Below, piece by piece: positions 31,884-36,227 of a stretch of DNA of 64,000 bases. The notes under the pieces are model-generated. The model saw only the letters and a program-made list of their open reading frames with translations, did no database searches and was not told the origin of the DNA. Position 1 is the first letter of the stretch, and the number at the start of each line of letters is the position of its first letter. Position numbers and translations under genes: made by a program. The stretch comes from an uncultured Sphingomonadaceae bacterium (lineage in GTDB: Bacteria > Pseudomonadota > Alphaproteobacteria > Sphingomonadales > Sphingomonadaceae), in NCBI GenBank assembly GCA_913060895.1, contig CAJXSN010000012.1, positions 19,935 through 83,934 of the forward strand, given 5' to 3'.

Positions 31884-34800
31884 ATGGCAAGATGGAAATA
31901 CGCGCGACTTTTTGGCGAGGACCCGGGGCCTGTTCTGCCCAATCCGGATAACGTTCCGCCCTTCGATTTCTCTCGCATTGCCGCCAGAGGAGTGAAGGCC
32001 AGAATCTTTGCCACCTTGTTTCGATTGCTACTCTGGCCTGTCCTGAGATTTCTACAACTCGTGCGCCCGGTTGCGCATATTGCTGGATTGACGATCGTCA
32101 CCAGGGAAGCGGACGTTCGTTTGATACTGGCCAGCCCCGACCGGTTCCGCACGCCGTTTGGCCCGGAAATGAAAGAGCTCGCAGGGGGCGAGACCTTCCT
32201 GCTCGGGCTAGATGGTGAGTCACACCAGAGACAGAAGCGAATTCTTGTAGATCTCATCGAGCTCCCTCGCGATGCGAAGTTTATCGCGGAAATATCGACC
32301 CGGTATTCCGATGCAATGCTCGATGCGGCGAAAGGCGACATTGATGTTCAGCAGGACCTTGTTACCCGCATCGCAGCCGAAGCCTGCATTCGATACATGG
32401 GCTTCGAAGTTTCAGATGCGGATGCTTTCGCGCAATGGACGATAGCCGCCTCCAACGTACTTTTTGGCGATCCCGGAGGATCAACGACGGCTGCCGAGCT
32501 GGCGAGCGTCGCTGGCGAGCAATTGCGCTCTATCGCCGATCGCGCACTTCACTCCGCAGCAGAGGCTGAGACTCCGCCTGAAACGTTGGCCGGCCGGCTG
32601 ATACGAATGTCGCGACAGCCCGACGGCCCCGACCTTGGCGAAGCACGTGCGATTCTGATTGGTCTCGCAGCAGGCTTCGTACCGACAAACGCTCTGGCGG
32701 GCGGCAAGATGTTGCAAGTGTTGGCGAAAAATCGCCATGCGCGCCGGAAAGCGATTGCCGCTGCACACTCTCAGGATCACGAGGCGTTGCAAACTATATT
32801 GCTGGAAGCAGGCCGTTTGAACCCCGCCCTCGCCCCGGGACAATGGCGGTGGTGTCCGGAGCGAACCACAGTCGAGCGGGCAGACGGGTCATCCTTCGCA
32901 GTGCCGGCCAGAAGACTGGTTTTGGTTTCCACCATGGCGGCTTTACGCGACCCGCGCGTCTGGAAGCAGCCGAACCGCTTCCGCACAGATCGGGCGCACG
33001 AACCCGACCTCCTGTTCGGACACATGTTCCACACATGCCTCGGCAAGGAGCTCGCCCTCGCGCAGATCACGGCAACGTTCGGTGCACTTCTGCGGCGCCC
33101 GAAGATCGAGAAATCATTATCCAGTCTGCGGATGAAATTCCGCGGACCATACCCGTGCCACGCACGGCTGACTTACTGGCATTTTGCCCACGACGAAAAC
33201 AGCGCTGGAATCGACCAGAACGGCATTTTGTTCGCTGTGCCTGTCTCAATGGCTCACGACGTCGTTGCCGCCAACCGGGTTGTAACCGAGACCCTTGAAA
33301 CCAGTGCTTCGCGGACAGCGCTGAATGGCACCGGTATCGTCCACTTTCTTTCCTGCACAGTGGTTGAATTGCCAACAGATGAGTTCGAACATCAGCTATT
33401 ATTGATCGAAATTAACGCCGATGGACCTGCCGACAAGGCTGCAGCACTTGCAATAGGTGCGATAAAACAGCCCTTACGCGAAGTGCTAAAGGCCGTCGGT
33501 TTGTCGGCCGGCGACGATGTATACGACTTCCTCTTGCGCTATCGCATCAAGATGCAAGGGCGGCCTTGGGGGGCAACCGCGCTCAATTTCTATGGATTGC
33601 CGGGGCTTACTGTGCAGCAAATAGCGCAGGAACAAAGCCTTGCCGAGTATGTGCGTAATGAAATCGATTCCTATCAGCGATGCGAACTCGGGCGCAGCAG
33701 CCGCCCTTCGACAGTTCTAGCGTACATACGCCGCGTGATTCGAGGGACTAGCGCCTCTCTTGACGAGCACTGTCGATTTACGAAGACATGTGCAGACGCC
33801 CCGCTTTACGAACATTTGCTACTGAAGCCGAAAAACAGCGTGCCGAGGCTTGCCAAGTGGAGCAAACAAGGCCGACCCAACCTCTGGACTATCATACGCC
33901 GCTCTGCATTATTCTGGCGCTTCGTGTCGGCATTTGCCATCGCCTGCTTCATCACTGGCACTCTGCTTTATACGGTGCTCGACCCAGGTGGAGGCGACCG
34001 GACGGCGCTATGGCTTTCCTTCCCTTGGCTCGCATTACAAAGTTTCGTCGCAACTTTCACAATCTTCGGGATTCTGACTGGTTTTTGCCTCTGGCTGCTG
34101 CGCCGGAAAGAAAAGCGGGATCAGGCCGACACCGACAAACCCGATCTGGCGCACCTTCGGAAACTCGCCGAGCGTGAGGATCTGCCGGGTCACTCCAAGA
34201 ATCATATAACTGTCGTAACGCCCCTGAAGAGAGGGCTCTTACGCCGTCTGACCTTGGCTTTTGCCCTTTGGGGGATTGGGCAGGTCGTAACCCATTATTA
34301 TCGACCGGGTTTTGTTCTTAATATGGGAACGATTCAATTCGCTCGCTGGGTCAGACTACCACGCACCAACACGATGATTTTCCAGTCCAATTACGATGGG
34401 AACTGGGAAAGCTATCTCGAAGACTTTATCACGCGAGCGCATCTGGGGCAGACTGCGGCATGGTCAAATTGTGAAGGCTTTCCAAAAAGTCGGTACTTGC
34501 TGTTCGATGGTGCCGAGAATGGCGACAAATTCAAAAACTATGTCCGACGCAAACAAGTCCCTACGGCGTATTGGTACGCCCGTTTTCCAGCGATTACGGC
34601 CGACCAGATCAGGCGCAATCATTTGATAAGAGACGGCTTGGCACGCGCGACAAGCGATAGCGAAGCGCGTGACTGGCTTGCGCTATTTGGTTCTGCCCCG
34701 CGCCTAGATTCGGAAATCGAGACTGAAGAAGTACAGACGCTAGTTTTCAACGGCTTCGGACGTTTGAAGCAGGCCACATTTCTGATGCTCCAGCTGCCCG

Positions 34801-36227
34801 AAGAACGCGGGCAGGCGCGCAAATGGCTGCGGACACTTTCTGGATACCCTCTCGACGACATGAGGAGCGACTGGAAGTCGCTTTCTGCATACATGTTGAA
34901 CGAGCGCGATGAACTGAAGCCTGAGTTTCGCGTGACGTTTGGCGAAACCGAACCTGATATCGGGGCAAGCACTCTTGGTATCTCTGGTCCAGGTCTTCGC
35001 AAACTCGTGCGCGGAGGGCACCCCCTTCTCGACGAACTGCCAGGCGCATATGCCATGGGCATGCAGGAACGCGCCGCGCTAATTGGAGACAGGGAGGAGG
35101 ACGTTGGCCGATGGAACGATGGCGGCGGGATTTATGGTGTCGATCTTGTACTGTGCGTTTATTCCGCCACCGCTAAGCAGCATTCCGCAGCTTTGGCAGC
35201 GCACAGCGCCCTGATTGAAACGTATGGTCTGAAGGAAATAGATCGGCAAGAAACATGCCCGCTTCCGTGCACTGGTCCGCCTACAGACCATTTCGGCTTT
35301 AAGGATGGGCTCGTCCAGCCAATAATCGAAGGAAGTTCGAAGTCGGGGCTCGATCGCAATCCGGACGATATCGTAGCCGCTGGCGAAATGATAAGCGGTT
35401 ACACCAACGTTCAGGGGTACCATTCGCCGGGTGTGCATGTTGCAGCTACCCTTGATCCTCTGAACATTCTGCCCGACGCCGCGCCTCGGGGGAGTCACTT
35501 CCCAAAATTCGGCACAGGCAGCATGACACCGTGCCCGCCCAGGGATTTCAGCCGGAATGGAACCTACATGGCCGTTCGGGTTCTGGAACAGCACGTTGAA
35601 GCATTCGCTGATGCATGCGAAAAAATAGCCAATAACACTAACAAGAAATACAAACATCTGCAGAGCGCTCTTGGCAGAGAAGCAGAGCCAGAGTGGGTAG
35701 CGGCGAAAATGGTCGGTCGCTGGAAGAATGGCTCATCCCTCCTGTCCAATCCCGCTAAATCAGGGGTGCTTCGCGCACAAGATTATGCGCTGCCCTTTGG
35801 GCAGGAGGATCCGCGCGGGCTGCGGTGCCCTTTTGGGTCCCATGTTCGACGAGCTAATCCTCGTGATAGCCTGTTACCGGGAGACGAGCAGGAGATTGCC
35901 ATTGCCAATCGTCACCGCCTCATGCGCCGTGGCCGCACATACGAACGCGGAGAAGAAAAAGGCTTGTTTTTTGTCGCGCTATGCTCGGACCTAGAACGGC
36001 AGTTCGAATTTGTTCAAAGAAATTGGCTCAATTCTTCGAATTTTCATACGCTCAGCGATGAAAACGATCCGCTACTCGGGCGTAAATCCGGCACAAGTGG
36101 CACTTTTACTGTGCCGACTAGCGGTGGGAGTATCATCTTTGAAGATCTTTCGTCTTTCGTCTCAACCAAAGCCGGCGGTTACTTTTTCGTTCCTAGCAAA
36201 AGTGCGCTTCTCTACTTAGCAACCTAA
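31884..36227 (+). CDS. Cytochrome P450 - membrane linker - DyP-type peroxidase fusion protein (1447 aa)
   Basis: P450: I-helix-like GLAAGFVPTNALAG, ExxR (E308-A-G-R311), Cys-ligand loop LFGHMFHTCLGKELALAQ (C385). DyP: GFKDG (D1141), CPFGSHVRRANPRDS (H1320), DLERQFEFVQRNW. One uninterrupted ORF. Confidence 0.9.
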   Translation: MARWKYARLFGEDPGPVLPNPDNVPPFDFSRIAARGVKARIFATLFRLLLWPVLRFLQLVRPVAHIAGLTIVTREADVRLILASPDRFRTPFGPEMKELAGGETFLLGLDGESHQRQKRILVDLIELPRDAKFIAEISTRYSDAMLDAAKGDIDVQQDLVTRIAAEACIRYMGFEVSDADAFAQWTIAASNVLFGDPGGSTTAAELASVAGEQLRSIADRALHSAAEAETPPETLAGRLIRMSRQPDGPDLGEARAILIGLAAGFVPTNALAGGKMLQVLAKNRHARRKAIAAAHSQDHEALQTILLEAGRLNPALAPGQWRWCPERTTVERADGSSFAVPARRLVLVSTMAALRDPRVWKQPNRFRTDRAHEPDLLFGHMFHTCLGKELALAQITATFGALLRRPKIEKSLSSLRMKFRGPYPCHARLTYWHFAHDENSAGIDQNGILFAVPVSMAHDVVAANRVVTETLETSASRTALNGTGIVHFLSCTVVELPTDEFEHQLLLIEINADGPADKAAALAIGAIKQPLREVLKAVGLSAGDDVYDFLLRYRIKMQGRPWGATALNFYGLPGLTVQQIAQEQSLAEYVRNEIDSYQRCELGRSSRPSTVLAYIRRVIRGTSASLDEHCRFTKTCADAPLYEHLLLKPKNSVPRLAKWSKQGRPNLWTIIRRSALFWRFVSAFAIACFITGTLLYTVLDPGGGDRTALWLSFPWLALQSFVATFTIFGILTGFCLWLLRRKEKRDQADTDKPDLAHLRKLAEREDLPGHSKNHITVVTPLKRGLLRRLTLAFALWGIGQVVTHYYRPGFVLNMGTIQFARWVRLPRTNTMIFQSNYDGNWESYLEDFITRAHLGQTAAWSNCEGFPKSRYLLFDGAENGDKFKNYVRRKQVPTAYWYARFPAITADQIRRNHLIRDGLARATSDSEARDWLALFGSAPRLDSEIETEEVQTLVFNGFGRLKQATFLMLQLPEERGQARKWLRTLSGYPLDDMRSDWKSLSAYMLNERDELKPEFRVTFGETEPDIGASTLGISGPGLRKLVRGGHPLLDELPGAYAMGMQERAALIGDREEDVGRWNDGGGIYGVDLVLCVYSATAKQHSAALAAHSALIETYGLKEIDRQETCPLPCTGPPTDHFGFKDGLVQPIIEGSSKSGLDRNPDDIVAAGEMISGYTNVQGYHSPGVHVAATLDPLNILPDAAPRGSHFPKFGTGSMTPCPPRDFSRNGTYMAVRVLEQHVEAFADACEKIANNTNKKYKHLQSALGREAEPEWVAAKMVGRWKNGSSLLSNPAKSGVLRAQDYALPFGQEDPRGLRCPFGSHVRRANPRDSLLPGDEQEIAIANRHRLMRRGRTYERGEEKGLFFVALCSDLERQFEFVQRNWLNSSNFHTLSDENDPLLGRKSGTSGTFTVPTSGGSIIFEDLSSFVSTKAGGYFFVPSKSALLYLAT

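What the first reader, a model, noticed from the sequence alone, without database searches (positions are those of the whole stretch)
31884..36227. Single-chain cytochrome P450 - membrane linker - DyP peroxidase fusion (1447 aa)
Seen directly: one uninterrupted ORF contains a P450 half with ExxR (E308/R311) and a Cys heme-ligand loop FGHMFHTCLG (C385), and a C-terminal DyP half with the GxxDG catalytic Asp (GFKDG, D1141), the heme-ligand His in GSHVRRANPRD (H1320) and DLERQFEFVQRNW. Established: P450s use thiolate-heme and DyP peroxidases use His-ligated heme; fungal Ppo oxylipin synthases fuse a heme peroxidase/dioxygenase to a P450, but with an unrelated animal-type peroxidase and in the opposite order. 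Inference: this may be a two-heme oxidase, with one heme making or consuming a peroxide intermediate for the other, conceptually an independent bacterial analogue of Ppo-type lipid-mediator synthesis. The P450 has a variant loop (Met replaces the usual Gly of FxxGxHxCxG), and no ferredoxin or reductase partner is encoded next to it, which fits peroxide-driven or isomerase-type chemistry.
Basis: partly seen in the sequence, partly recalled or inferred. Interest (0 to 1): 0.9.

Follow-up and report, generated by a model that had tools for sequence, protein, structure and literature searches.

The report
P450–DyP two-heme membrane enzyme
A bacterium related to marine sphingomonads makes one long membrane protein that joins two different heme enzymes, a cytochrome P450 and a dye-decolorizing peroxidase; the same pair recurs, fused or as neighbouring genes, across many bacteria, sometimes beside phospholipase and fatty-acid-oxygenase genes, so it may be a bacterial counterpart of the enzymes that make lipid signals in fungi and animals.

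Summary
ORF 31884-36227 is one 1447-aa protein with an N-terminal P450 (C385, E308/R311) and a C-terminal DyP (D1141, H1320, distal R1345). Between them lie an unnamed domain, a two-helix membrane hairpin and a highly conserved unnamed domain, called here 'SNYDG'. It is no artefact: some 30 homologues (32-75% identity) share the order, and a SARP-TPR regulator gene ends 3 nt upstream. Across Pseudomonadota, DyP+SNYDG genes recur beside a second heme enzyme: in 58 loci a P450 in 36 (fused or adjacent), a catalase-fold protein in 10, never both; the partner changed at least four times on the DyP tree. Reverse-order DyP-P450 fusions and a DyP-catalase fusion also occur. The P450 I-helix has Pro in place of the oxygen-activation acid (43/50). 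Some catalase-fold partners lack the distal His. Some loci add patatin phospholipases, FadL, or a heme dioxygenase nearest plant fatty-acid alpha-dioxygenase. Best reading: a two-heme oxidase working in sequence on a peroxide or hydroperoxide, probably of lipids, an independent analogue of fungal dioxygenase-P450 fusions. Substrate and order of steps are unproven. No paper describing it was found.

The parts
31884..36227 (+). P450-DyP fusion gene, 1447 aa
31962..33188 (+). cytochrome P450 domain, residues 27-435
   Evidence: Pfam PF00067, AlphaFold pLDDT 89 and Foldseek
32673..32687 (+). I-helix motif GFVPT (264-268); Pro267 stands where P450s have the acid, Thr268 is the alcohol
   Evidence: family alignment
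32805..32816 (+). ExxR motif, E308-R311
33015..33044 (+). heme-thiolate loop FGHMFHTCLG, C385
   Evidence: Cys in 50/50
33321..33803 (+). unnamed alpha/beta domain (residues 480-640), probably a distant paralogue of the SNYDG domain
33912..34103 (+). two-helix transmembrane hairpin (hydropathy peaks at residues 681 and 721), conserved in homologues
34284..34853 (+). SNYDG domain (residues 801-990, FxSNYDGxWExYLEDF motif), no Pfam model, most conserved part of the protein
34881..36224 (+). DyP-type peroxidase domain, residues 1000-1447
   Evidence: PF20628, PDB sequence and fold matches
35295..35309 (+). GFKDG catalytic Asp motif, D1141
35835..35852 (+). GSHVRR, proximal heme ligand H1320
35916..35918 (+). 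distal Arg R1345
30162..31880 (+). SARP-like winged-helix plus TPR regulator, ends 3 nt before the fusion start codon; homologues in 17 sampled genomes
   Evidence: TPR; conserved position; the winged-helix (BTAD-type) reading of the N-terminus is from the sequence and my own knowledge

Best explanation
A membrane-anchored two-heme oxidase with both heme domains on the cytoplasmic face (topology inferred). The DyP domain, with the conserved SNYDG domain, uses peroxide to make a radical or peroxidic product of a hydrophobic substrate. The P450 domain then rearranges or re-uses that (hydro)peroxide without needing reductase-fed O2 activation. The substrate is most likely a fatty-acyl chain from membrane lipid, which would make the system an oxylipin-like mediator synthase switched on by signal-responsive regulators. 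Shown: the fusion, intact catalytic residues, the recurring linkage of the two hemes, partner swapping, and the altered P450 I-helix. Inferred: cooperation in catalysis, the order of steps, the lipid substrate and a signalling role.
For: Both catalytic centres intact and under purifying selection. The pair occurs in P450-to-DyP order, in DyP-to-P450 order (G389, P0041, P0042), and as adjacent separate genes, often overlapping or back-to-back (G544, G803, G1138, G508, G676, G981). 36 loci with P450, 10 with a catalase-fold protein, 0 with both, Fisher p = 1.2e-5; at least 4 partner changes on the DyP tree, all forced by well-supported branches; a DyP-catalase fusion in G927. Acid of the I-helix replaced by Pro in 43/50. 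Distal His replaced by Asn or lost in 4 of 11 catalase-fold partners, proximal Tyr kept in all. Lipid-related neighbours: patatin beside 5 loci (expected about 0.8, Poisson p about 0.001), LCAT-like lipase in G207, GDPD in G981, FadL in G820, and in 3 loci a 1000-1150 aa An_peroxidase whose closest solved relative is plant fatty-acid alpha-dioxygenase. Precedent for a heme dioxygenase working with a catalase-related hydroperoxide lyase: Nostoc 10S-DOX, as reported in PMC13049297.
Against: No lipid gene is conserved beside the fused form itself; patatin is present in only 5 of 58 loci. Where an alpha-dioxygenase-like peroxidase and a catalase-fold protein are both present, the DyP is not needed as the oxygenase, so its role may be different. 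Lipoxygenase is absent from 27 of 28 genomes. Pro for the acid does not prove loss of monooxygenase activity; redox partners encoded elsewhere in the genome were not excluded, and the genome has five other P450s. Loci are related, so the p-values are optimistic; genes were called by a simple script.
Confidence: 0.42

Rival explanations
1. Peroxide-coupled pair with a non-lipid hydrophobic substrate: DyP and P450 carry out successive oxidations on, for example, a carotenoid, hopanoid or secondary metabolite in the membrane.
For: Membrane hairpin; P450 fold nearest secondary-metabolite P450s; patchy distribution, 13 of 201 genomes in the family.
Against: No biosynthetic gene cluster is conserved around the loci; the neighbours that do recur with a chemical function are lipases and fatty-acid oxygenases.
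Confidence: 0.25
2. Conventional P450 monooxygenase with a DyP attached to remove or use H2O2 leaked by the P450 cycle, that is, protection rather than joint catalysis.
For: Both domains look catalytically complete; Thr of the I-helix is kept in 43/50.
Against: The proton-relay acid is lost in most members; no reductase or ferredoxin partner beside 37 P450 loci in a motif scan; when the partner changes it is the P450 that is replaced by a catalase-fold protein while the DyP stays, which a scavenger role of DyP does not predict.
Confidence: 0.15
3. Stress, signalling or conflict enzyme in which oxidised product or radical damage is the output, switched on by cAMP, SARP or sigma-factor systems.
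For: Regulators recur next to the loci: SARP-TPR in 17, CRP-type in 11, adenylate cyclase-AAA-TPR proteins in 8 genomes; sigma factor, zinc-finger anti-sigma-like protein and subtilase in the 1530-aa subgroup.
Against: No PADLOC match for the fusion protein; matches of the neighbours are only to their general domains. Compatible with, rather than exclusive of, the lipid-mediator reading.
Confidence: 0.13

Closest known systems
Fungal DOX-CYP fusions (Ppo / linoleate diol synthases, allene oxide and epoxyalcohol synthases)
   Same: One chain with a heme peroxidase-type domain and a P450; P450s of that group are self-sufficient hydroperoxide isomerases (PMC13049297).
   Different: Peroxidase half is DyP-fold, not the animal/COX peroxidase fold; order is reversed; extra unnamed domains and a membrane hairpin; activity unknown here.
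Nostoc 10S-dioxygenase with catalase-related hydroperoxide lyase, and coral catalase-related AOS-LOX fusions
   Same: An oxygenase paired with a second, catalase-fold heme enzyme; catalase-fold partners alternate with P450 in the loci studied here.
   Different: The constant partner here is a DyP with a SNYDG protein; lipoxygenase is absent from nearly all genomes checked.
DyP-type peroxidases, nearest solved Deinococcus radiodurans DyP (8re2/8re3)
   Same: Fold, GxxDG Asp, proximal His, distal Arg.
   Different: 23% identity; fused or linked to P450/catalase and SNYDG; membrane anchored; substrate unknown.
CYP152 peroxygenases and CYP74 clan
   Same: P450s using peroxide or hydroperoxide without redox partners (CYP74: PMC10813956; CYP152: own knowledge); the oxygen-activation acid is not kept there either (own knowledge).
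   Different: CYP152 model only weakly matched (E 0.02); no nine-residue insertion in the heme loop that marks CYP74 (PMC10813956).

Membership tests
Cytochrome P450 superfamily | P450 fold, ExxR, Cys heme loop | tested here: met
   PF00067 above cut-off, C385 50/50, E308 48/50 and R311 49/50, AlphaFold and Foldseek
Classical P450 monooxygenase | acid-alcohol pair of the I-helix used for O2 activation | tested here: not met
   acid replaced by Pro in 43/50, alcohol Thr kept in 43/50; typical of monooxygenases but not required for superfamily membership
DyP-type peroxidase superfamily | DyP fold, GxxDG Asp, proximal His, distal Arg | tested here: met
   PF20628 above cut-off, fold match, D1141 93/95, H1320 95/95, R1345 94/95
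DyP-type peroxidase superfamily | heme binding and peroxidase activity | not testable with these tools
   needs purified protein
Fungal DOX-CYP (Ppo) family | An_peroxidase (COX-type) domain N-terminal to the P450 | tested here: not met
   peroxidase half is DyP and C-terminal
Fungal DOX-CYP (Ppo) family | fatty-acid dioxygenase plus hydroperoxide isomerase activity | not testable with these tools
   needs enzyme assays
CYP74 clan | nine-residue insertion in the heme-binding loop | tested here: not met
   loop FGHMFHTCLG without insertion; criterion from PMC10813956
CYP152 peroxygenase | match to the family model above cut-off | tested here: not met
   13.3 bits against a cut-off of 600 for the CypC model
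Self-sufficient P450-reductase fusions (CYP102, CYP116B) | fused flavin/iron-sulfur reductase domain | tested here: not met
   no such domain in Pfam or NCBIfam scans
Known anti-phage defence systems | match to PADLOC models | tested here: not met
   none for the fusion

The most novel reading that the evidence does not exclude
Bacteria evolved a lipid-mediator synthase of their own, built on a DyP peroxidase core plus the unnamed SNYDG domain, with a second heme module (P450 or catalase-fold) that is swapped or fused independently several times; it parallels cyclooxygenase/lipoxygenase pathways with unrelated parts and is under SARP or cAMP control.
Probability: 0.28. Interest if true: 0.9.

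Novelty: new variant of a known kind. Interest (0 to 1): 0.72.

Why it matters
If right, two heme enzyme superfamilies not known to work together form a widespread bacterial oxidase system, and DyPs, whose natural substrates are mostly unknown, would gain a physiological role. It would also be a case of convergent evolution with fungal and animal lipid-mediator synthesis that can be tested directly with one recombinant protein and fatty-acid hydroperoxides. The SNYDG domain, the most conserved part and without a family model, is a clear target.

Tried and rejected
Literature searches (10) for a P450-DyP fusion, a DyP oxylipin link or a domain-architecture report gave nothing on this fusion; the library lacks most subscription papers, and the primary paper on Nostoc 10S-DOX was not held, so that precedent is cited through PMC13049297. 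One genome-contig scan with the single protein found only two loci. Lipoxygenase as the missing first enzyme: present in 1 of 28 genomes. Register of the I-helix: two single-sequence alignments disagreed by one residue; settled by split relatives with GAVDT, GSVDTT and GGIETT at the same columns. Direct profile comparison of the two unnamed domains was weak (hhalign E 0.008, probability 5%); homology rests on both profiles matching the same stretch of stand-alone proteins. The catalase-fold partner gave no match to coral AOS in the PDB at E 0.01, so 'AOS-like' is not claimed. Defence role: no support in PADLOC. Twelve loci had neither P450 nor catalase-fold partner detected; some carry long unassigned C-terminal regions (G369, and G292 with weak P450 matches), so 'neither' may be overcounted.
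Full report
OBSERVATION. The reading frame at 31884-36227 encodes 1447 aa without interruption. 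Pfam places p450 and Dyp_perox_C above their cut-offs, and single-sequence searches of the PDB find P450s for residues about 70-417 and DyPs for about 1030-1446. I add the distal Arg R1345, the TM hairpin (hydropathy peaks 681 and 721), and two unnamed domains around it: residues 480-640, and residues 801-990 with the motif FxSNYDGxWExYLEDF, called SNYDG here.

REALITY OF THE FUSION. A search of 5.8 billion proteins returned 41 relatives, about 30 of them near full length with the same order, 32-75% identical, named examples being Qipengyuania sp. JC766 and two Chelativorans species (Erythrobacteraceae and Phyllobacteriaceae). In whole genomes the fusion was found in 9 of 201 sampled members of the family and in two other family groups (f175, f179). 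Against the 75% identical copy in G066, synonymous sites are near saturation while dN is 0.15 (P450), 0.31 (480-640), 0.19 (TM), 0.08 (SNYDG) and 0.19 (DyP). All parts are therefore maintained, the SNYDG domain most strictly.

STRUCTURE. P450 plus the 480-640 domain is modelled with pLDDT 89 and pTM 0.88 and matches P450 structures with target TM about 0.8. The SNYDG-DyP half has pLDDT 73.5, good in the DyP core and poor in SNYDG; the best fold match is Deinococcus radiodurans DyP, target TM 0.80, 23% identity.

THE TWO HEMES BELONG TOGETHER. Outside the fused group the same parts are separate neighbours: SNYDG-DyP-P450 in successive, often overlapping ORFs in G544, G803, G1138, G1127, G1027, and SNYDG (one or two copies), DyP and P450 in G508, G676, G820, G981, G960, G978, G308 and G207. 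In G389, P0041 and P0042 the P450 is fused behind the DyP, so fusion happened at least twice. On a tree of 72 DyP domains the P450-to-DyP fusion needs one to three origins.

PARTNER SWAPPING. Among 58 loci with a DyP of this group, 36 have a P450 within 6 kb or fused, 10 have a catalase-fold protein, none has both, 12 have neither (Fisher p 1.2e-5, optimistic because loci are related). On the DyP tree the partner changes at least four times. In G927 a catalase-fold domain is fused to the DyP (residues 526-900). The catalase-fold proteins keep the proximal Tyr, but in G1053, G122 and G648 the distal His is Asn, and in G927 it is also lost, which argues against ordinary catalase chemistry for those (the need for the distal His is established catalase knowledge). 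P450 and catalase folds are also two known alternatives for rearranging fatty-acid hydroperoxides (CYP74 and fungal CYP partners; coral and cyanobacterial catalase-related enzymes, PMC10813956 and PMC13049297).

P450 CHEMISTRY. The I-helix reads GFVPT in the window and GxxPT in most relatives: the acid of the acid-alcohol pair is Pro in 43 of 50, Thr is kept in 43 and is Gln in 6. A few divergent separate P450s keep Asp or Glu, which fixes the alignment register. No ferredoxin was recognised beside 37 P450 loci, by motif scan only. This favours peroxide- or hydroperoxide-driven chemistry but does not prove it. The Met in the Cys loop is confined to close relatives and tells nothing.

LIPID CONTEXT. 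Patatin-like phospholipases lie beside five loci (G350b, G389, G820, G978, G1120), where about 0.8 would be expected from their density in these genomes. An LCAT-like lipase adjoins G207 and a glycerophosphodiesterase G981. In G820 the run is SNYDG, a 203-aa ORF of the SNYDG size, DyP, patatin, P450, FadL. Three catalase-type loci carry a 1000-1150 aa animal-type peroxidase; the one compared has plant fatty-acid alpha-dioxygenases as its best solved relatives. These are a minority, and the fused form itself has none; its immediate conserved neighbour is the SARP-TPR regulator. The window does have a fatty-acyl-reductase-like SDR (PF07993) downstream on the other strand, but its linkage was not tested.

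REGULATION. SARP-TPR regulators occur in 17 genomes, CRP-type regulators in 11, adenylate cyclase-AAA-TPR proteins in 8, and a sigma factor with zinc-finger anti-sigma-like protein and subtilase in the subgroup G056/G039/G070/G137. The system looks switched on by signals rather than housekeeping (inference).

CONCLUSION. A real, recurrent two-heme system of new composition. Working model: the DyP (with SNYDG) uses peroxide to oxidise a hydrophobic, probably fatty-acyl substrate, and the P450, or a catalase-fold stand-in, rearranges the product. My estimates: functional linkage about 0.85, hydroperoxide-type use of the P450 about 0.6, a lipid substrate about 0.5, the stated order of steps about 0.3. 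It works like fungal DOX-CYP fusions but is not a member of that family: the peroxidase fold and the order differ. No description was found in the held literature, which is not complete.

Noticed in passing
23869-30006 (-): A 2045-aa repetitive, autotransporter-like protein is encoded divergently from the SARP-fusion operon; a homologue lies in the same place in G066 (L016). No Pfam match.
   Followed up: partly
34284-34853: The SNYDG domain is the most conserved part of the fusion, has no Pfam model, and occurs alone or in tandem as about 200-260 aa proteins next to DyP genes in many Pseudomonadota.
   Followed up: partly
L117:1542-4910, L118:1130-4603, L099:3269-6295: Bacterial animal-type heme peroxidases of 1000-1150 aa (the one compared is closest to plant fatty-acid alpha-dioxygenase) sit beside catalase-fold, SNYDG and DyP genes.
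   Followed up: partly
L097, L117, L118: Catalase-fold proteins of about 390-420 aa with distal His replaced by Asn but proximal Tyr kept: unlikely to be catalases.
   Followed up: partly
P0038, P0039: 1800-aa variants with a very divergent N-terminal P450-like domain and about 330 extra residues rich in hydrophobic, probably membrane-spanning stretches.
   Followed up: no
L101:4385-5779: RoxA-like cytochrome c (rubber oxygenase relative) next to a DyP of this group in G685.
   Followed up: no
L020, L021, L022, L023: A subgroup of the fusion is followed by a zinc-finger anti-sigma-like gene and a subtilase, with a sigma factor gene upstream in some: looks like a regulated proteolysis module.
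   Followed up: no
36779-37810 (-): SDR protein with a fatty-acyl-reductase-type NAD_binding_4 domain, convergent with the fusion gene.
   Followed up: no
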